Of a stretch of 64,000 nucleotides of DNA, positions 10,101 to 39,369 are shown in pieces. Each line of letters begins with the position of its first letter. Positions within the stretch are counted from its first letter, which is position 1. The position numbers were made by a program, and so were the translations under genes. The notes beneath the pieces are model-generated. The model ran no database searches. It worked only from the letters and a program-made list of their open reading frames with translations, and was not told where the DNA came from. Source of the DNA: a virus; the IMG/VR virus record IMGVR_UViG_3300032296_002405, positions 1-64,000 of that record, one strand, 5' to 3'.

Positions 10101-13100
10101 CAGGTCGCATCCAAGCTGTTTGGACAGGAGGTAGTTGCGACTGAAATAAACGGTGTTGAGCAACCATCCGTTAAGGTCACTCCACAGATGAAAGCCGAAG
10201 TCAAAAGGGGACTGCCGCAGATGTCGCTGATGGGAACACGGATGGTAGTTGAGAAACCAAACGAGCCTACCCTCAAGGCTGCTGGTCTGACACCTTCCGA
10301 AGTGGAACAATGGAAAAAGAAAAACAAGGTATCACAGCGTGAGGGAAGGGTCACCGGTGTTCAGAAATCAGCACAAGATCTTTATGAGGGTAAGATAACC
10401 GTATACCAACACATAGCGAACGTAAGGAAAGAACAACCCGCTAGAACCTATCAGGCCGTTCCACAACTTCCTTCATACAAAGATGTGACATCTTCACTTG
10501 CTGAAAATCAAATGGAGACAGGTGTGGTGGGTCTGAACAAAGGCATAACACAAGGAACACAAGTAGGAGCAAGACTAGATATACCGTCATTCAATAATTA
10601 CGGCACTAATGTTGTTTCAATACACGAAGCTACGGGATCAGGAAAAGCCATAGGGTACGGTCGTACCGCATCATTATCCAATGTTAAATTCAAGACAAGT
10701 CCAAGTGCCGCATTGAAAGTAGCTATGGGCGAATCGAAAGGGACATGGGCTAGGATGATTGGTTCCTGGAATAACGAAAGCGACCAATCAGTAGTTGACC
10801 GTGCCAAGCAGGCTATCAGCAGTGGTGAATGGATACAAATCGGTATCAATCCGTTCCGACACAGTTGGTTTTACAATAGGGCCACTGGTATGCCGGTGAT
10901 GGAAGCTGCCGAGGTGTTACAGGTAGGCAATATGGTATTGGCTAGGGGTGCAAGGGAACTGAACCTGAACAATGCAAAGGACAAGGCTGAATTCGAGGAG
11001 ACATTCAAAGTTAAACTTAAAAGTGGTGCTATAGGTCAGTTCTCGCTGATGGGTGAGAGAGATGTCGCCAAGAGGTTGGAGGGGGTGGGCAGAAACAACT
11101 ATGATAAACTGATTGATATATATGTTAAAAACAGAATAAATGGAAGACCATTAAGGATATCAATTCAAGACATGATGAATGAAGAACCTTTGTCGTTAAC
11201 ATTCAACAATGTTGAACCATTTTCAAGGGAGCCATATGCGGTTCAATTTTCAGATGGATGGCCAATGGTTAGGTTAACTGATGGAAGATATACTGATGGC
11301 GATTTGATATATGAATCATGGGATCAATTAATTGAACTAAATAAGGATAATATTGATGAGTATTTTATGGATTTGGAAACAAATCGTGAAATTGATGTCA
11401 GGAATGATGTTCGAGTAAAACAAATTGAAAATAATAGTTATGATTCATTATCTGACATAGGATTTTGGAATAAAGCCACTAAAAATCTGTCAGAATATCT
11501 TGGGTATACATCACCTATGCAGATGCAAGAGGAAAGTCTGGAAGATGCTGAAATAGCAATGAATTTGACAGCAAAAGCGGTTGATTTATATAATGAAGGT
11601 AAAATAAAGACTGACATTGATTTTTACACAAAAGTTCTTGGTTTGACTAATGAAGAGGCTAAATCTAAAATAAAGAATGTCTCATTTGCAGATGCTTTGT
11701 CTCAAATGTATGTTGAATCAAAGAAAAGAGGCTCCAATCCTGAACTCGTCAAGGCCGTAGAGGATGCCATAGATAAACCCCGTGGCCAGGCATCGCTGGT
11801 CGGCACTCGTGGCATCCGACCTACCACTAGGGAGGATGTTGAGGCGGCATTGTCCCGTGGAGACAGGGTCATTGCAACACTTGAGATGGATGATGAGCCT
11901 ATAGAAATAACCAGCATGGCTATGGTTGACCGTATCGATCTCGATACGACCGTAATCATTCCGGATGTCAAGGGCAAGATGAAGAAGGCGTTCCCCAACG
12001 GTCAGATGTCGATATTCGCTCCAAGGGGTATGATGAATACCGCTGAAGAGGCAAAGAGGCAATATCCGTATCATCAAATATTGGTAGATATAGGTTTGGA
12101 TGCGTACCGGAACCAAGGCATCCGCAACTACGCTTCGTTCGTGACCTATGCGAAACAGTTTGATGCATCCATTAACAAGAACCCTTACATGAAAAGGGTT
12201 TGGGAGGATGTGACTCGTATCGTGAACGGCAAGAAACCGCTCATACAAAGCGAAAAAGACTATAGGGATTTCCTTATCAAGGAGAACGACGTACCCGTAG
12301 CCAATGCGGAAAGGTTGAAGAAACGCAACTACAAGAGCATGGTTACAAGGACCAAGGGCGCATTGCTTGATTCCAGGGCCGAACTATTCAAGGCGCTATC
12401 AGAATCCAGCAACAGGCTGTGGTCTATTGCCGCCAACTATGTAAATGTAATCGGTGGTATGGGAGCCAAGTCCATATATACTGCTAACTTTTTGGCTGAT
12501 GGTGTTTTCAAAGGATTAAGCACCAAGAAGGAATACCTAATAGGTGACCAGATGCAGTCCGAGAGTACGATATTCAACCATATGCTTGTCCGTATCCGTG
12601 TGCTGGAGATTCAGCGCAAGATGCAGGATAAGTTTGATGAGTTCATGGATGTTGATTCAAAAATAAAAGAAATAGAAACAGCCAGTAAGGACTTGAAAAT
12701 GTATGCCAGGGAAATGGATTCACTTGAGAAAAAATACAATAAACTCAAGGACAAGAATACCCAGGAGGCGATTGATATGCTTGATAAGATAAACGAGTAT
12801 ATGGATTCAATTAAGGTTACTCAAGATCTGATAAAAAAGGAACATGGTGACTTGAAAGTCGACAAGGATGGAAACTACATCGTTCCATCGGAGTATATAG
12901 ACACACGTGACAATGTACGCAGGTATCTTGACCGGAACAATATGCTTATTCAGGACTCAAATGGTAAGTATTCACTAGGAACATACCAATTCGCAAACAA
13001 CCTGAACGAACGCACCGCTTTCAATGAGAATGAGCAGGTGTTGGAACAATACCCAGAATTATACGAAAAACTGATGCAACGGGCCGATGCGTATCACCAA

Positions 13101-24655: not shown

Positions 24656-24745
24656 TGTCGGTTGGCGTAAACGAAAATGAATATCGTCTGAGGGTAACGC
24701 CCCTATTAACTTAGGGAGATGCGGGTTCGACTCCCGCACCGACAA
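24656..24745 (+). tRNA. tRNA-like element, non-canonical
   Basis: A perfect 7-bp acceptor stem (TGTCGGT 24656-24662 with ACCGACA 24738-24744) and a perfect T arm (GCGGG-TTCGACT-CCCGC 24721-24737) are joined by 58 bases in which a normal D arm cannot be drawn. Instead GGCGT (24664-24668) pairs with ACGCC (24697-24701), and CCTA/TAGG (24702-24705 with 24712-24715) forms a short arm with a 6-base loop where the anticodon should be. The anticodon cannot be assigned, and CCA is not encoded. It could be a degenerate or highly divergent tRNA, or a tRNA mimic. Confidence 0.5.
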
Positions 24746-30377: not shown

Positions 30378-30757
30378 AGCACACCTCCCTTCTCCAAATT
30401 GGAACGCATATAGTACAACAAGTCATCGGTGACAACACCATCGCCTTCAAAGTTCTCAAGCAGATCAATCACATGGTCTATCATTTTCCTACTGGTATTG
30501 CTTACCTCCTTTCCTCCCAAGTCATCAACCAACAACACCTCGGATGGATCGTACTCATCATCCCCATCAATCTCGCAGATGAATTGTGGGATGTAACCAC
30601 ATCCATCGAATAACGATTCTACCGATAGTGTAACCTGGCCGTGTGCTTTCAGTTCGGTGATGACACGATAGGCAATGTCCCTCTCATCCATCGCATCGCT
30701 GAAATACCATGCGAGGAATGAACTCGCAGTAACCTTGTTCTTTATTAAGTTTGTCAT
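30374..30757 (-). CDS. Acidic hypothetical protein
   Basis: 127 residues with two acidic loops (EIDGDDEYDPSEVLLVDDL; ENFEGDGVVTDDL) and a helical end. The stop overlaps the next start (ATGA) and the last codons (KGGVL) encode a GGAGGTG ribosome binding site. No domain is recognised. Confidence 0.55.
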   Translation of the reverse strand: MTNLIKNKVTASSFLAWYFSDAMDERDIAYRVITELKAHGQVTLSVESLFDGCGYIPQFICEIDGDDEYDPSEVLLVDDLGGKEVSNTSRKMIDHVIDLLENFEGDGVVTDDLLYYMRSNLEKGGVL

Positions 30758-30788
30758 TTTGCTTATGCGTACCGACTCGCCAGTCTGC

Positions 30789-31016
30789 TTATTGTTTGAA
30801 ATCTTCGTAATAACACTTACCTAATTGAACCTCTTTCACACTACCACCATAATACTCAAAAGAGTCATCGAAATTGGTACTACTATCGGGTTGAAGTTTT
30901 TTCCACTCACGATATTCTTTTTTCAATGCCTTGTAACAAGATTCTTCGCTTAACTCCACCACACTTATTCCGTAACCGAATATTTCAGGAATAATACCTA
31001 TCCAAACGGTTTTCAT
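30789..31016 (-). CDS. Hypothetical protein
   Basis: 75 residues: a short hydrophobic start (WIGIIPEIFGYGISVVEL) and a charged, aromatic remainder. It starts by ATGA overlap with the small membrane protein upstream, preceded by AAAGGAGGTG. Function unknown. Confidence 0.55.
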   Translation of the reverse strand: MKTVWIGIIPEIFGYGISVVELSEESCYKALKKEYREWKKLQPDSSTNFDDSFEYYGGSVKEVQLGKCYYEDFKQ

Positions 31017-32895: not shown

Positions 32896-33136
32896 TGGAT
32901 ACCTCCTTCCATATCTGCTCAAGACTCCATGTGTTGCCGTTCTCAAAAACCTGCAACCTATATGCAGTTCCGTTCTCTGCAATGGCACTAACCTTTATAT
33001 CCGATGACAATAGACCATGCCGATAGGATTGGTGGTAGTGCCTTTGGCAATACCGAAGAACTGCGATTTCCGTAGGTAGCAAATCGCTGACCTTTTCGCT
33101 GATAGTTACAATGTAACCGATGAATGTTGTTTCCAT
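32888..33136 (-). CDS. Small hypothetical protein
   Basis: 82 residues, mixed strand/helix (TTFIGYIVTISEKVSDLL, LQVFENGNTWSLEQIW). The C-terminus KEVSNG carries the next ribosome binding site. Function unknown. Confidence 0.5.
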   Translation of the reverse strand: METTFIGYIVTISEKVSDLLPTEIAVLRYCQRHYHQSYRHGLLSSDIKVSAIAENGTAYRLQVFENGNTWSLEQIWKEVSNG

Positions 33137-33178
33137 TTTGTCTGATTGGTTAGCCTATACACCATAAGGTTTTAGTTA

Positions 33179-33445
33179 TTATTTCGCTCTCACTATGTAT
33201 ATTAACTCTCCACTCTCCATACACTCACGATGATAATAGTACTCACCATCGCAGTAGAACTCACCTTGGCTCTGCATCGGCTCATCGGTAATCGGACATT
33301 CCCACTCCATAATCCCATCGTGTAAGTGACCAGAGTAAGTGCCATCATATACCAACGGCTCTCCATTGGCATCGCAGTTGTGATCCTTGAGCCATAGCAC
33401 ATATGCCTTGAATGACTCCCAATTGTTTTTGATACGGTTCTTCAT
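33179..33445 (-). CDS. Small protein with possible metal-binding cysteines and histidines
   Basis: 88 residues with DHNCDANG, MEWECPITDEPM, FYCDGEYYYHRECM: cysteines and histidines spaced as in a small zinc-binding module, though not a standard finger. It may bind RNA, DNA or protein. No family is assigned. Confidence 0.5.
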   Translation of the reverse strand: MKNRIKNNWESFKAYVLWLKDHNCDANGEPLVYDGTYSGHLHDGIMEWECPITDEPMQSQGEFYCDGEYYYHRECMESGELIYIVRAK

Positions 33446-33453
33446 CTTGTTTT

Positions 33454-33696
33454 TTATTTGTTAGAGTTTATATGTTCCACTATATCGCTGATCCGTTCGA
33501 CCGACATCCCAAAAACGAATTGCCCACTCTCGAACTCTCGTAGGTAACCGTATCGCATAACATCGGTAAGCACTTCGTATCTGCCACCATCTATGATGAT
33601 GCGATGGTTCTCTCTTTGGATATCCAAGTTCGGCAATGCCTTGCGTAATTCGATAACCGCATCCAACTCGTATCCTTTGCCTATGTACATACTCAT
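33454..33696 (-). CDS. Small hypothetical protein
   Basis: 80 residues, basic/acidic mixed (VIELRKALPNLDIQRENHRIIID). It starts by ATGA overlap with the gene upstream, whose last codons (GEVSK) again provide a GAGGTA-type ribosome binding site. Confidence 0.5.
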   Translation of the reverse strand: MSMYIGKGYELDAVIELRKALPNLDIQRENHRIIIDGGRYEVLTDVMRYGYLREFESGQFVFGMSVERISDIVEHINSNK

Positions 33697-34394
33697 TTCG
33701 ATACCTCCCCTCTCACTACAAAACCACTCTTGTCTGCCTTGGCTTTGCCCTTTGCCTTCAGTCCAATGATTACCCCATTGTTGTGCATCATAACATCATC
33801 GGCAATGTCCCCATCTATAACCTTGTAGCCTTGGTATTCACTCGGCAATGGCTTTGTATGGTCAAACACAACTGCGACATTCACTCCCATAGCAAGTGCC
33901 TTTTTGCAATCGCTCCAATTGTTCTCTGAACGAGAGAATGTTTGCACATACCGAGTGCCTTGGTATTTCTCAACCTTGCCGATTTGCTTTGTGTAGTCGT
34001 AAAACTGAATGTTGGTCATCTCTTGGAGCAAGTCCACATTCAGCCTCTGCTTAACGATTCCGAACCAATCCAAATCTGATGTGCCGTTCAGTCTAACTTC
34101 CACAGGCTTTCCCTTGGAGTTAATCTTGCGAAGTTCTGCTACGAGTTGATTCAGGAATTCCTCTCGTTTCAGAAGGTAGTAATCGCTCTTGGAAATCCTC
34201 GCCCTCTGCACCGAGTTGAATGCTCCTCTGCCACTTGTGTTGAGGCAAACCGAAATGCACCCTTGGGATGCTTTTGGGCATAAGTTCACACCCTTGGAAT
34301 TCAGAGTGAATGGTGCAAGGTAGAGAATGTAACTCTCCAATGTGTTCTTGCTTGTCTTGGCATTCGTAGTGCCTTTGCTGAGAATGGTTTTCAT
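33693..34394 (-). CDS. Conserved phage protein with CX6CX3C motif
   Basis: 233 residues. The N-terminal block GVNLCPKASQGCISVCLNTS with C39, C46 and C50 and the following SGRGAFNSVQRARI are typical of a widespread phage family of unknown function (DUF7227-like, from memory). The body resembles an alpha/beta barrel (VEVRLNGTSDLDW, QFYDYTKQIGKV, YVQTFSRSENN). The cysteines could hold a metal or iron-sulfur cluster. It is the first gene of the minus-strand block and lies directly downstream of the structured non-coding region. Confidence 0.65.
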   Translation of the reverse strand: MKTILSKGTTNAKTSKNTLESYILYLAPFTLNSKGVNLCPKASQGCISVCLNTSGRGAFNSVQRARISKSDYYLLKREEFLNQLVAELRKINSKGKPVEVRLNGTSDLDWFGIVKQRLNVDLLQEMTNIQFYDYTKQIGKVEKYQGTRYVQTFSRSENNWSDCKKALAMGVNVAVVFDHTKPLPSEYQGYKVIDGDIADDVMMHNNGVIIGLKAKGKAKADKSGFVVRGEVSK

Positions 34395-35140
34395 TTGTCT
34401 TGATTCGGTTCACCTACCCACCGAAAGGTTTAGTTGCCCACCATTGGCTGTCCGACAGCGTACACCTATAGCAATGAAATAGGTCACGGCTAGTGCCGTG
34501 TCTCGTTCGTAGGTTTCACCCTACAATGGTGGCTAATGATTGATTTTTCCAGAGCATAATTGCCACATACTATTGGGGACTGCTACCCAACATCCCCTCT
34601 CTCGCAGAGGGACATCAGAGGTGAAGTGTGTTTAGCCTTTCTACGATTCGTGCATCAGCCTTGTCCAATCTAACGGAATAGCGATTTCCGAGTGAGGGAT
34701 ATGGGATTCCCTCGTGGGGTGATGACTATCGGAACTACAAATTCCGAGCGTATTTATACCGACACAATGACTCCTACGGAGGGCAAGTAAGCATACACCT
34801 ATCCCTCTATGTTCATTGTGTCCACATCGAAGACACCTTGGTCAGTTCACAACAAGCCACACTAGACCGAACTAGGCATTTTAGCACTCTGCTTCCATTC
34901 GCTTCCTATCTCACGACAGTACCTTGGCAAATTACTCGCTTCCGAGTTGTGGCTATCATTTCAAATTACCCTAAAACACTCCTTGTGTGGTGGGTCGGCT
35001 TCGTTACACACATCTACGAGCGATGCGTAATGGTAACTACCTTATGCCATAGTTAATCCGATTGATTAACGATTACAAAGATGGGGGTATAAACATTTGT
35101 TAATACCCTATACATAAATTTTTATTTAATTGGTTTACAA
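34395..35140 (-). ncRNA. Candidate large structured RNA or 5' leader
   Basis: About 750 bases without a convincing gene but with many hairpins: GCTGT/ACAGC 34447-34459, ACCTAT/ATAGGT 34464-34484, CACGGC/GCCGTG 34485-34500 and GTAGG/CCTAC 34509-34524, all inside a closing stem 34438-34446/34524-34532; TTGGG/CCCAA 34573-34590; CCCTCT/AGAGGG 34595-34611; GAGGGA/TCCCTC 34694-34713; TCGGAA/TTCCGA 34729-34747; a 10-bp stem 34761-34770/34813-34822; ACTCG/CGAGT 34934-34947; TGTGTG/CACACA 34984-35012; GCGTAA/TTATGC 35025-35047; GGGTAT/ATACCC 35085-35108. The minus strand is favoured because unpaired parts are purine-rich there and all adjacent genes are on it. It could be a stand-alone RNA or a regulatory leader of the small-gene block. 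Confidence 0.6.
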
Positions 35141-35159
35141 CATATTACAAAGATGTTGT
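35137..35159 (-). promoter_or_regulatory. Promoter within a palindromic operator
   Basis: ACAACAT (35137-35143) and ATGTTGT (35153-35159) form a 7-bp palindrome with a 9-base centre. Within it the minus-strand CATCTTTG (35148-35155) differs by one base from TAnnTTTG. The same 12-mer ATTACAAAGATG recurs at 35072-35083, giving a second CATCTTTG. Transcription would enter the structured region. The palindrome is a good operator candidate for the nearby regulator. Confidence 0.5.
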
Positions 35160-35199
35160 CCCAATATAAAACATTATGTTAAATAGATTCGGCGTGAAT

Positions 35200-35616
35200 T
35201 CACCAAGAGTCATCCCAAACCGATTCAATATTGGGATGTATCATAACCCAAGTTGGGACTCGGAGAGCAATGGACATAGTGGTAAGATAAGTTAATTGAA
35301 CTGACCTTTTGTAGCCTCCGTATGTTATGCCCTTCCTACTTACATTGATGCCGACCTTTGCCAAGTCCCTAACCAATTGGGCAACATTAGAACCCCTTCG
35401 GTATGCAAGATACTTGATGTTGTAACGAAGTAATGCCATATTTGAATCTAGATGCTCTAAAACATCATCTCTCAAAGTGGGTGAAAGTTCAAAAGACTTT
35501 CCATTAGTGAATCTTGGAACTGCATTGGGTTTTCGGGTGAATCTTGCCTTTTGCCTATGCCCTCTTTTGCTCCCCAAAGTTTCAATTTTGGCACTAACTG
35601 CTTCGGCTTCGCTCAT
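35200..35616 (-). CDS. Putative helix-turn-helix regulator
   Basis: 138 residues. Basic N-terminus (RGHRQKARFTRKPN), then a region resembling an XRE-type helix-turn-helix: NIKYLAYRRGSNVAQLVRDLAKVGI followed by TYLTTMSIALRVPTWVMIHP, the usual last helix of such domains. The likeness is moderate. Its place between the origin and the palindrome-bearing promoter suggests it controls the minus-strand block. Confidence 0.55.
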   Translation of the reverse strand: MSEAEAVSAKIETLGSKRGHRQKARFTRKPNAVPRFTNGKSFELSPTLRDDVLEHLDSNMALLRYNIKYLAYRRGSNVAQLVRDLAKVGINVSRKGITYGGYKRSVQLTYLTTMSIALRVPTWVMIHPNIESVWDDSW

Positions 35617-35687
35617 GTTTCAACTTTGCCTGTACTGGTTTGTGTCATGTTCCATATCTCTAACCACCGATAGAGAATTGGAACAAG

Positions 35688-35695
35688 CAAATATA
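35688..35695 (-). promoter_or_regulatory. -7 box for the 35.2-kb regulator
   Basis: Minus-strand TATATTTG (35688-35695) fits TAnnTTTG. It lies 71 bases before the regulator's start; an 11-codon reading frame (MEHDTNQYRQS) sits in the leader and ends just before it. No clear -33 box. Confidence 0.45.
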
Positions 35696-35773
35696 ACTTC
35701 TTGATACATAACTTTTTGCATTGGATTTTCGCTTTCGGTTTGGGTTAGATTTGATTTTGTCAAAGATACGCAA

Positions 35774-35872
35774 ATACGCGCACATATACGCGCGTGTGTG
35801 TGTGCGTGATCGCGCGCGTACCCGGGGGGGTGTGCCTGGGCGCGCGTGTGCGTACCCGTGTGTGGTATGTGT
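35774..35872. other. Alternating purine-pyrimidine, Z-DNA-like tract
   Basis: About 100 bases dominated by CG, CA and TG steps (for example CGCGCACATATACGCGCG, then TGTGTGTGTGCGTG, CGCGCGCGTAC, GGGCGCGCGTGTGCG), interrupted by one CCCGGGGGGG block. Such runs readily adopt left-handed DNA under negative supercoiling. It lies beside the iteron region and differs completely from all surrounding sequence. It carries no gene. Confidence 0.65.
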
Positions 35873-35903
35873 CTCCACCTGTCCCCGGCAGAAAAAAAAT
35901 TTT

Positions 35904-36224
35904 GTGGTAACGTGGTAAGGTGTGGTAAGTAGAAAATGTTACATACTTACCACGCCAAACGCATTGATATGTAATATATTATATACTTTGTGGTAAGGTG
36001 GTAAGTAAAATTCATTAATTAGTATATATATATATATAAAATACGCATATATACATATATAGTTGATAATCAATAACAGTTGGATTTATTGAAAAAAAAA
36101 TATTTTGTTCCGGGTAATTTATAGGAAAGTACTTACCACATTACCACAAATTGGCTTTTTAGAACGGAGGTGATTGATTATCAGGCTGAAAAGTGTGGTA
36201 AGTGGTCTTACCACATCTTACCAC
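35904..36224. other. Probable replication origin: iterons and AT-rich segment
   Basis: The 8-mer GTGGTAAG or a near-copy occurs about eleven times: 35904 (one mismatch), 35912, 35922, 35990, 35998 and 36195 direct; 35946, 36132, 36140 (one mismatch), 36207 and 36217 inverted. The last three lie inside the end of the primase-helicase gene. Between the clusters is a very AT-rich stretch (about 36010-36120, including TATATATATATATATA), a likely unwinding element. The G/C strand bias changes sign around this point. Iterons, unwinding element and adjacent primase-helicase together make an origin likely. 35617-36158 contains no protein gene. Confidence 0.7.
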
Positions 36225-38333
36225 ATTATAGCACTTGACCATGGCTGGTCCTTTCCGTTTTGTTTTGGGATCGCCGAATAGTTTACGGAGTTCGATACCG
36301 AACTTGGCCATATGTCGTATTTGTTGTTTGGTATTGATTTCTATTTCATTTTTTATTTCGGTGGCGGTGAGCCAGTCGATGTGTCCTGATCCGTCGGGGG
36401 GGTAGAAGAATTGGAGGATGAGTTCTCGTTCGTAGCAGATGGAGGTAAAGTCATCGGACACATCTCCGAGTTGATTGACCTCGTCGGTGGACAGGAGCCA
36501 TGTTTCGCCTGATGCGTATGCGTGGTAAGCTTCCATGAAGAGTTCCACTCGGTCAATGGCATTGATACGATTGAAGTCTATCGACTCCACTTTGATTGGA
36601 AGGATACGGGTATTGCCGGTCGGGTCGGATATGACTTCGTTAGGGTTGGAAGTACCGCACAGGACGGCTAGGCGTTTGTAGTCCATGTTGTCCCGGCGGT
36701 ATGGCGCTCGGAGGGAGAAGGTGTCTTTGGAGGTAAGTTCTTTGAGGCGTTTCTCGTCTTGTTTGGATTTGCCACCCATTTCGTCGTCCATGACAATGAG
36801 TTTCTGGCACATGAGCAGTTCATCGTCTTTGCCTCGGTCGAGTTTGGATTCTGCGTAGTACGACCGAAGGGAGTTAGGCAGTAGCCGACGAAAGAACTCT
36901 GTTTTGCCGTTGTATTGGGGGCCGGTGAAAACGAGCATGGACCGCACGGGGTATCCGTCTATGGCGGCGTGTATGCCGATGAGCCACTTGCGTATCCAGT
37001 TGGCGGCGTGTGGGGTATTGGTACGAACGCAGGAGATGAGGGCATCGATGACACCGGTTGGTTGTACCGATTGGTGTTTGGCGATGAACTCCTTGATGGG
37101 GTGGTAGGTGGGGGTTTGGTTGGAGAACAGTATGGTCTGGACCAGGTCCTTGGTGACGTTGGGTGTGTTGAACACGGCTCTGGCGTTGAGGTAGATGTCG
37201 TTGATGTCTTCTTCGAGGAGGGCTTCGCCGGAGCGGGATTTCTCGAGTTTGTGGGTTACGGCGTTTCGTTTGACCGGGTACTTGGTCTTGATGAACATGA
37301 TAAGGCCTTCGATCAGGTGTTCGGGGTCTGAGGCGAGGGTGGCCAGGGTCACATCGGGTCGGGACTGTACGCTCCGTGCGATGGATTCGGCTTGTGTGGT
37401 TGACAGGTCGCCTCTGCTGGACAGTACGGATGCCACGTCTTCGCCCGATGCCTTGGCTGTTGCGGCCAGGGTTATGAGATCTCGGTTGGTCTTGGGCAGT
37501 GTCACGCCTGCCTGTTTGAGCATGTGGTAGAAGGTTCCGATGGTGACACGGCGTCCGGTGGTGTCACGGCGCAGTGCGATGGAGTACTGTCGGTCGGCCT
37601 GCTCGGTGGAGTACTTGGCACTCATGGAGCAGAGCGAGTGGAAGTGTGAACGGCCTGACTCGCCCAGTTCGTCGGCCAGGGCGAAGGAGAGGTTGAGGTA
37701 GTCTTCGTAGGATTCGGCGATGCTGACTCCGGATGCTACGGCGTCGGATACGAGTTGGCTGATTTGGTCACCGGTGTATACGATGGGTAGGGACTTGGGT
37801 ACTACTACACGGCGTGCCTTGGTCTTGGCTGTTCGGCTGGACTCGTTGACGACCAGGTCCGGGTCATACGATACGAACCGAAGTGATACGATGTTGCGTG
37901 GTTTGGAGTCGATGACTACGCCGTAGGTGTCGAAGTAGTATTGTTGGAGCCAGTCGAAGGATTCGTTGTGTTTGTCGGGTTTGACTTTGACCATGATGGC
38001 CACGCCTTGGCGGCTGACCGAGTCGAACAGGGCGTAGGTGTACGGGTCCAGTGCCAGTGCGGTTCGGTTGCATTCGGTGTCGATGTCGATGCAGATGAAT
38101 CCTGAGTGTTTGACCAGGGACGATTGGTTGCGTTTGGTGAACACGCCGCTGACGGTCACGCACGGTACGGATCGTTTGGCGGTGTCGCGGGAGTCCTTGT
38201 CCTCACAAGAGCGGACGGCTTCGACTTGTTCGGCCCATTTGCCGTTGCGTATGCCATCGAGCAGTTCGCTGATGGCGAGCATGGCTGATGGTTCGGTTGC
38301 GTATGCGTTTGGGAACAGGGATATTTGGCTCAT
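36159..38333 (-). CDS. VirE/VapE-type primase-helicase
   Basis: 724 residues. Residues about 60-160 form a BT4734/VirE N-terminal-like primase domain with SGFICIDID (D83 and D85, probable metal ligands). A middle helical region follows. Residues about 440-640 are the VapE-like P-loop ATPase: Walker A GPQYNGKT (471-478), Walker B LIVMDDE (512-518), and LCGTSNPNEVISDPTGNTR as sensor/arginine-finger region. The C-terminus is a winged-helix-like part. It should unwind and prime the phage origin, which lies at and just past its 3' end. On the coding strand the gene is C-rich, opposite to most genes here. Confidence 0.8.
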   Translation of the reverse strand: MSQISLFPNAYATEPSAMLAISELLDGIRNGKWAEQVEAVRSCEDKDSRDTAKRSVPCVTVSGVFTKRNQSSLVKHSGFICIDIDTECNRTALALDPYTYALFDSVSRQGVAIMVKVKPDKHNESFDWLQQYYFDTYGVVIDSKPRNIVSLRFVSYDPDLVVNESSRTAKTKARRVVVPKSLPIVYTGDQISQLVSDAVASGVSIAESYEDYLNLSFALADELGESGRSHFHSLCSMSAKYSTEQADRQYSIALRRDTTGRRVTIGTFYHMLKQAGVTLPKTNRDLITLAATAKASGEDVASVLSSRGDLSTTQAESIARSVQSRPDVTLATLASDPEHLIEGLIMFIKTKYPVKRNAVTHKLEKSRSGEALLEEDINDIYLNARAVFNTPNVTKDLVQTILFSNQTPTYHPIKEFIAKHQSVQPTGVIDALISCVRTNTPHAANWIRKWLIGIHAAIDGYPVRSMLVFTGPQYNGKTEFFRRLLPNSLRSYYAESKLDRGKDDELLMCQKLIVMDDEMGGKSKQDEKRLKELTSKDTFSLRAPYRRDNMDYKRLAVLCGTSNPNEVISDPTGNTRILPIKVESIDFNRINAIDRVELFMEAYHAYASGETWLLSTDEVNQLGDVSDDFTSICYERELILQFFYPPDGSGHIDWLTATEIKNEIEINTKQQIRHMAKFGIELRKLFGDPKTKRKGPAMVKCYNVVRCGKTTYHTFQPDNQSPPF

Positions 38334-38441: not shown

Positions 38442-38690
38442 CTATGAGTACTTAAAAATAATTTCATTGTATTTTTGAAGGAAATCCTCAAAAGAGTTTA
38501 TATGGATAAAACTAACATTATCCATATTGTTTGATCCGTTATCGATAACCCAGTAAATTTCTATTGGTATATCTATTCCAGTAATCCTTACATTGATATT
38601 TGATACAACTTTATTACTATTTGAATTCCAGGCCGTGTGGCCATTATCAATAAGGTGTTTTATTATCGATGATTTTAGATTTTGCATCAA
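38442..38690 (-). CDS. Hypothetical protein behind HNH nuclease
   Basis: 82 residues, AT-rich, overlapping the HNH gene by about 44 bases; a start at the second methionine (38687) is equally possible. Asn-rich with a beta core (VVSNINVRITGIDIPIEIYWVI). It shares the low GC of the HNH gene and may have arrived with it. Confidence 0.5.
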   Translation of the reverse strand: MMQNLKSSIIKHLIDNGHTAWNSNSNKVVSNINVRITGIDIPIEIYWVIDNGSNNMDNVSFIHINSFEDFLQKYNEIIFKYS

Positions 38691-39369
38691 TTATAACTCT
38701 ATTTACTATTATTTTTTTCTTTCTTGCAATGTAATAACATTTAATACACCTAGTACTATTTTTATATATAATAGAATCGCAATCAATACATTTTTTAAAT
38801 ATAAATTCTCTAGTTTTTTTTCTAATATTTTTAAAATCTAATCCATGTACTTTACCATGGCAATTTATACATAATGTAATACCATTATCTATGTCAAATC
38901 TTTTTTCAATAGATACTGACCATGGTATTATATGATGAGCTTCAAGATTAATATTCGAGTTGCAATGTTTGCAATTATAATTATCCCTTTTTAATACAGC
39001 ATTCCTCCATTTGTATATTTCCCTTGAATATTTTGATCTTTTATTTGTATTGTATTTTCCTCCTTTCCAAAAATTAGACTTTTCCCCTTTTAATCTTTCA
39101 GATTGGGCGTCATTTTGACATTTTGATGAGCAGTATTTATTTCTATATCTTTTTTTTTCACCATTTAATTGCCATTGGTTTCCACATCTTTTACAGTTTT
39201 TATATCTGGGTTTTATATTGTGTTTTTTGCCTATCCTTTGATTAGATTTGTTTTTGTTTTGGCATTCTTTTGAACAAGTAAATACTCTGTTTTCTTTTGA
39301 TTTTTGTATATCAAAAGAGGCATTACATACCTTACAGTTTTTTATAATTCTGTTTTTTTTATTAAACAT
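38647..39369 (-). CDS. HNH endonuclease with zinc-finger clusters
   Basis: 240 residues. Three N-terminal Cys pairs (NCKVCNASF, TCSKECQ, NCKRCGNQW, YCSSKC) look like zinc-binding DNA-recognition modules. The HNH core is CKHCNSNINLEAHHIIPW...DNGITLCINCHGKVHG, with the zinc Cys pairs and the catalytic HH. Another Cys pair set follows (KKCIDCDSII, TRCIKCYYI). The gene is far more AT-rich than its neighbours and Lys/Asn-rich, as free-standing homing endonucleases often are. Confidence 0.85.
   Translation of the reverse strand: MFNKKNRIIKNCKVCNASFDIQKSKENRVFTCSKECQNKNKSNQRIGKKHNIKPRYKNCKRCGNQWQLNGEKKRYRNKYCSSKCQNDAQSERLKGEKSNFWKGGKYNTNKRSKYSREIYKWRNAVLKRDNYNCKHCNSNINLEAHHIIPWSVSIEKRFDIDNGITLCINCHGKVHGLDFKNIRKKTREFIFKKCIDCDSIIYKNSTRCIKCYYIARKKKIIVNRVIIDAKSKIIDNKTPY

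What the first reader, a model, noticed from the sequence alone, without database searches (positions are those of the whole stretch)
34395..35140. Candidate ~750-nt structured non-coding RNA in front of the small-gene operon
The interval has no convincing gene, yet it holds at least a dozen hairpins of 5-10 bp, packed end to end. One sub-domain (34438-34532) is a 9-bp closing stem around four adjoining hairpins, a five-way junction rarely formed by chance; another is a 10-bp stem at 34761-34770/34813-34822. Large ornate RNAs such as GOLLD and ROOL are known from phages, but I could not match this sequence to any of them from memory. It may be a stand-alone RNA or a regulatory leader for the genes below 34394.
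Basis: partly seen in the sequence, partly recalled or inferred. Interest (0 to 1): 0.85.

Follow-up and report, generated by a model that had tools for sequence, protein, structure and literature searches.

The report
Orphan hairpin-dense RNA in Bacteroidota phage
In front of an early gene cluster, a phage of Bacteroidota carries about 640 bases that code for no protein but hold three times more hairpins than chance allows; this probably makes a large folded RNA of a kind not seen before, but no relative was found anywhere, so neither its fold nor its job can yet be confirmed.

Summary
34395-35140 has no convincing reading frame, and its hairpins are real: 15 perfect hairpins with stems of at least 5 bp against 4.9 expected (0 of 300 shuffles), and 8 with stems of at least 6 bp against 1.3. 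Of 28,263 windows of 650 nt from this and related phages it ranks first, tied only with a protein-repeat gene. The five-way junction (34438-34532) and the 10-bp stem are present and better than chance. The likely transcript is on the minus strand, body about 34434-35070, behind two promoter-like boxes. The last ~39 nt before the gene are a separate translation leader that recurs before another gene.

No relative was found in Rfam, IMG/VR, phage or plasmid records, or sampled Bacteroidota genomes, so covariation could not be tested. A ~97% identical sister phage lacks the whole 2-kb block (RNA, GP88 gene, two small genes) and carries an ArdA anti-restriction gene in its place: an accessory in a swappable early slot next to a probable origin, not a core leader. 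Best reading: an orphan large structured phage RNA, probably trans-acting; a cis leader is the main rival. Membership in GOLLD, ROOL, HEARO or introns was tested and not met.

The parts
34434..35070 (-). probable structured RNA body (~637 nt)
   Evidence: non-coding; MFE -206.7, z -3.0, 1 of 200 shuffles; 94 confident pairs (p>0.9) vs 49+-25 in shuffles, 6 of 80 reach it
35052..35070 (-). 7-bp hairpin GTTAATC-AATCG-GATTAAC at the expected 5' end of the transcript
   Evidence: pairing probability 0.97
34562..34953 (-). large central multi-branched domain closed by GCCACA/TGTGGC; inside it GTTCGGTCTA/TAGATTGGAC (34863-34872/34663-34672, p 0.99, with G-U pairs)
34761..34822 (-). 10-bp stem GACACAATGA/TCATTGTGTC with an inner hairpin 34779-34807; its 5' arm can instead pair in a GTGTC/GACAC hairpin (34818-34836), so two exclusive folds are possible
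   Evidence: 34750-34835 z -2.9
34438..34532 (-). five-way junction at the 3' end of the body: 9-bp closing stem and four hairpins
   Evidence: z -4.2, 1 of 500 shuffles; structure
34395..34433 (-). translation leader of the GP88 gene (AACCTT..GGTG..TAGG..AACC..AATCA..GACAA), a diverged copy of 33130-33171
35072..35083 (-). promoter-like -7 box CATCTTTG (in CATCTTTGTAAT), proximal copy
   Evidence: consensus TAnnTTTG from PMC7366714; one mismatch at the T; no clear -33 element
35144..35155 (-). second identical box CATCTTTGTAAT
33693..34394 (-). GP88-family protein (PF17338, 233 aa), first gene after the RNA
   Evidence: phrog_1617
33178..35211 (-). block absent from the near-identical relative L067 (RNA, GP88, 80-aa and 88-aa genes), where ArdA lies instead

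Best explanation
The interval encodes a large structured non-coding RNA of about 640 nt on the minus strand. It is the first element of an early, swappable gene block next to the phage's probable replication origin. It is probably transcribed from the Bacteroidota-type promoter boxes at 35072-35155, starts with a stable 5' hairpin, folds into a central multi-branched domain followed by a five-way junction, and is read through into the GP88 gene, since no terminator separates them. The sister phage carries an ArdA anti-restriction gene at the same site, so the block most likely serves the first minutes of infection, and the RNA most likely acts in trans (cut from the operon transcript or ending by itself) to block or distract a host defence or host machinery. 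Shown: non-coding status, hairpin excess, absence from the sister phage, ArdA in its place. Inferred: transcription, strand, trans action, anti-host role.
For: Hairpin excess 15 vs 4.9 and 8 vs 1.3, 0 of 300 shuffles. First of 28,263 windows in hairpin density (the tie, L140, is a leucine-rich-repeat gene). Five-way junction z -4.2. Minus strand folds better relative to shuffles (z -3.3 vs -2.5) and its confident pairs include 9 G-U against 1 on the plus strand. Promoter-like boxes just upstream and all neighbouring genes on the minus strand. The sister phage lacks the block and has ArdA (PF07275, E 5.5e-30) behind a box TATCTTTG that fits the consensus exactly.
Against: No homologue, hence no covariation. 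Folding energy is only moderately unusual, and most 200-nt pieces are not. Strand evidence is weak once controlled (strand energy difference reached by 13.5% of shuffles; G-U difference by 7 of 80). Perfect hairpins serve DNA as well as RNA. No intrinsic terminator ends the RNA. The promoter boxes deviate from consensus by one base and lack a clear -33 element. The anti-defence idea rests on one relative.
Confidence: 0.48

Rival explanations
1. Long cis-acting 5' leader: the structured RNA regulates transcription or translation of the GP88 gene and the genes after it, for example by alternative folds or by binding a phage protein.
For: No terminator between the RNA and GP88; the RNA is present with GP88 and absent with it; two exclusive pairings of GACAC exist.
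Against: About 640 nt is far longer than usual leaders. A separate 39-nt leader, shared with another gene, already sits before the GP88 start. GP88 genes of other phages mostly have small genes, not such an RNA, in front. Nothing in the fold masks the start codon in an obvious way.
Confidence: 0.27
2. DNA-level element: the hairpins form in single-stranded DNA and serve replication, priming or entry (single-strand origin or single-strand promoter) beside the origin.
For: Hairpins are nearly equally good on both strands. GTGGTAAG-type repeats (35279-36228) and a cumulative GC-skew minimum lie next door. Leading-region genes of plasmids include diverse anti-defence systems (PMC11541004).
Against: The sister phage keeps the neighbouring repeat region but lacks this stretch, so it is not needed for replication. 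Long-range helices with several G-U pairs are better explained by RNA.
Confidence: 0.12
3. Decayed protein gene or chance hairpin cluster in junk DNA left by cassette exchange.
For: Non-coding in a variable block; no homologue of any kind found.
Against: Hairpin excess reached by 0 of 300 shuffles; five reading frames give no PHROG below E 0.02; phages rarely keep 640 nt of junk in an early operon (general knowledge).
Confidence: 0.1

Closest known systems
GOLLD RNA
   Same: large (often over 800 nt), multi-branched, non-coding, phage-encoded, with a distinct 3' domain; first known from lake and Lactobacillales sequences (PMC12286853)
   Different: no match to its Rfam model even at E 10; no tRNA island here; it forms a nanocage, untested here
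ROOL RNA
   Same: large ornate RNA of phages and prophages, no known protein partner (PMC12286853)
   Different: no Rfam match; not beside tRNAs; sequence unrelated as far as tested
HEARO / omega RNA (guide RNAs of IscB-type nucleases)
   Same: structured RNA directly upstream of a gene it may serve
   Different: no Rfam match; the downstream gene is GP88, with no nuclease domain detected
ArdA slot / leading-region anti-defence genes
   Same: same genomic position in the sister phage, next to the probable origin
   Different: ArdA is a protein; this is non-coding

Membership tests
GOLLD | match to the Rfam covariance model | tested here: not met
   no match at gathering score nor at E 10
GOLLD | often encoded near tRNA islands | tested here: not met
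   one tRNA-Gln in the window, at 24656, about 9.7 kb away
ROOL | match to the Rfam covariance model | tested here: not met
GOLLD / ROOL / OLE | homo-oligomeric RNA-only complex | not testable with these tools
   needs cryo-EM or native gels
Large ornate ncRNA as a class | extensive secondary structure supported by covariation | tested here: inconclusive
   structure predicted and above chance, but no homologue found for covariation
Group I / group II intron | match to the intron models and an interrupted gene | tested here: not met
   no Rfam match at E 10; the stretch lies between genes
HEARO / omega RNA | Rfam match and an IscB-type nuclease gene next to it | tested here: not met
cis-regulatory leader (riboswitch and the like) | match to a known leader family, or terminator or start-codon masking | tested here: inconclusive
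   no Rfam match; no intrinsic terminator found; regulation not testable here

The most novel reading that the evidence does not exclude
A new class of large ornate phage RNA, unrelated to GOLLD, ROOL and OLE, that phages of Bacteroidota exchange for ArdA at an anti-defence locus: an RNA, rather than a protein, doing counter-defence work.
Probability: 0.22. Interest if true: 0.88.

Novelty: new variant of a known kind. Interest (0 to 1): 0.55.

Why it matters
Only a few large structured phage RNAs are known, and the functions of GOLLD and ROOL are not established. One that sits at the site where a sister phage keeps an anti-restriction gene would give such RNAs a testable role. It would also show that some are too rare or too divergent to be found by covariation screens.

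Tried and rejected
Relatives by DNA: blastn against phages, plasmids, 50 related viral records, six Bacteroidota genomes and 398 genomes of one order: none. A 27/28-nt match in Pollutibacter lies inside a sulfatase gene and is taken as chance. Relatives by translated 24-mers of all three minus-strand frames in IMG/VR and one frame in genomes: none. Single-sequence covariance models of the five-way junction (R1) and the central helix (R2) over 99 loci, and R1 over 44 records and genomes and 395 Bacteroidota genomes: only itself; such models find close relatives only, and no positive control other than the window was available. Neighbour genes as bait: the 138-aa, 80-aa + 88-aa and 298-aa genes found nothing. 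Non-coding gaps beside GP88 in other phages turned out mostly to hold small genes. A tRNA-like reading of the junction was rejected: ARAGORN does not call it and loop sizes do not fit. GP88 fold: AlphaFold pLDDT 86 but no solved structure below E 0.04, so GP88 gives no clue to the RNA. Literature searches for ornate RNAs of Bacteroidetes phages found nothing.

Full report
What is there. The window is 64,000 of 68,218 bases of an IMG/VR virus record. Its primase-helicase (36159-38333, minus) is closest to phages of Cellulophaga, Nonlabens and Flavobacterium and to copies in Chitinophagaceae and Pedobacter genomes, so the host is very probably a member of Bacteroidota. The main genes from about 30 to 40 kb lie on the minus strand. 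Between the 138-aa gene (35200-35616) and the GP88 gene (33693-34394) lie 805 bases without a plausible gene.

Is the structure more than chance? Yes. Perfect hairpins with stems of 5 bp or more: 15 against 4.9 expected; of 6 bp or more: 8 against 1.3; none of 300 dinucleotide shuffles reaches either. A hairpin-density scan of 28,263 overlapping 650-nt windows from the window and 145 related loci puts 34451-35100 first, tied only with a leucine-rich-repeat gene whose repeats explain its score. The 34438-34532 junction alone is at z -4.2, 1 of 500 shuffles. The overall energy is less striking: z -3.3 on the minus and -2.5 on the plus strand, -3.0 and -2.2 for the trimmed body, and most 200-nt pieces are ordinary.

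Anatomy on the minus strand. Two identical boxes CATCTTTGTAAT at 35144-35155 and 35072-35083 differ by one base from the Bacteroidota -7 consensus TAnnTTTG (PMC7366714). The proximal one is followed at once by a 7-bp hairpin (35052-35070), as one expects at the 5' end of a stable RNA. A multi-branched domain follows, closed by GCCACA/TGTGGC (34948-34953/34562-34567). It contains the helix GTTCGGTCTA/TAGATTGGAC (34863-34872/34663-34672, p 0.99, with G-U pairs), the perfect 10-bp stem GACACAATGA/TCATTGTGTC and several hairpins. The five-way junction comes next, with three junction strands of zero length. The predicted minimum-energy fold has four multi-branch loops. The segment GACAC can pair in two exclusive ways, so a conformational switch is possible.

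Where the RNA ends. The 39 bases before the GP88 start codon (34395-34433) are a diverged copy of the leader before the gene beyond the block (33130-33171) and of the same leader in the sister phage. I read this as a translation leader, separate from the RNA body. No intrinsic terminator lies between body and GP88, so the RNA is either cut out, ended by another route, or read through.

The sister phage. L067 (IMGVR_UViG_3300008117_000215) is 97-99% identical over 3.7 and 4.7 kb on the primase side. Its alignment stops at window 35212 and resumes at 33177. The 2,034 bases between, that is the RNA, GP88, and the 80-aa and 88-aa genes, are missing; in their place are 701 bases with an ArdA anti-restriction gene (PF07275, E 5.5e-30), behind a box TATCTTTG that fits the consensus. 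ArdA was not found in the window's record or in the 38 other related records and genomes searched. The RNA is thus an accessory of a swappable early slot. Beside the slot lie repeated GTGGTAAG units and the cumulative GC-skew minimum of the stretch profiled, which suggest the replication origin. The slot thereby resembles the leading regions of plasmids, where anti-defence genes gather (PMC11541004); that parallel is inference.

Relatives. None were found by any route (see Tried and rejected). So the covariation test that would settle the matter cannot be run, and the fold rests on one sequence. Strand evidence: G-U pairs among confident pairs are 9 on the minus and 1 on the plus strand, but 7 of 80 shuffles show such a difference. 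The promoter-like boxes and gene direction are the better reason to choose the minus strand.

What it most likely is. A large, orphan, structured phage RNA, first in an accessory early block; a trans-acting role against host defence or host machinery is the reading I prefer (0.48). A cis leader for GP88 is the main rival (0.27), then a DNA-level element (0.12), then junk (0.10). It looks like, and may work like, the ornate phage RNAs GOLLD and ROOL (PMC12286853), but it fails the tests for membership: no Rfam match even at E 10 and no tRNA island.

Noticed in passing
35279-36230: Repeats of GTGGTAAG/CTTACCAC (35279, 35905-35930, 35987-36007, 36130-36228) and the cumulative GC-skew minimum near 35.6 kb (28-42 kb profiled): probable iteron-type replication origin at the 3' end of the primase gene.
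   Followed up: partly
35770-35860: Alternating purine-pyrimidine tract (GTGTGTGTGCGTGATCGCGCGCG...) next to the probable origin, of the kind that can form Z-DNA; hairpin-rich as well.
   Followed up: no
33154-33171 and 34413-34430 (minus); L067 10829-10846: Repeated leader AACCTTNNGGTGNNTAGG..AACC before start codons, perhaps an H-type pseudoknot (CCU/AGG with GGU/ACC); the direct copies flank the GP88-80aa-88aa genes and may have guided cassette exchange.
   Followed up: partly
30757-30790 (minus); L067 ~10247-10275 and ~13030-13070: Second family of leaders, CTGGCGAG..GTACGC, before the 127-aa gene here and before ArdA and another gene in L067: short structured translation leaders seem to be reused in this phage.
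   Followed up: no
38442-39369 (minus): HNH endonuclease gene of about 27% GC inside DNA of 40-59% GC, also present in L067: likely a homing insertion next to the primase gene.
   Followed up: no
22858 (-) and 22911 (+): Back-to-back promoter-like pairs (TTG..TATATTTG and TTG..TACATTTG) that fit the Bacteroidota consensus well: probable divergent control region.
   Followed up: no
L060 and L058, 700 nt upstream of GP88: Folding z -5.0 (20 shuffles) in a stretch with small frames of 59 and 68 aa; may hold another structured RNA.
   Followed up: no
35200-35616 versus L067 9717-10139: The 138-aa gene upstream of the slot is strongly diverged between two phages that are ~97% identical around it: fast-evolving or exchanged.
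   Followed up: no
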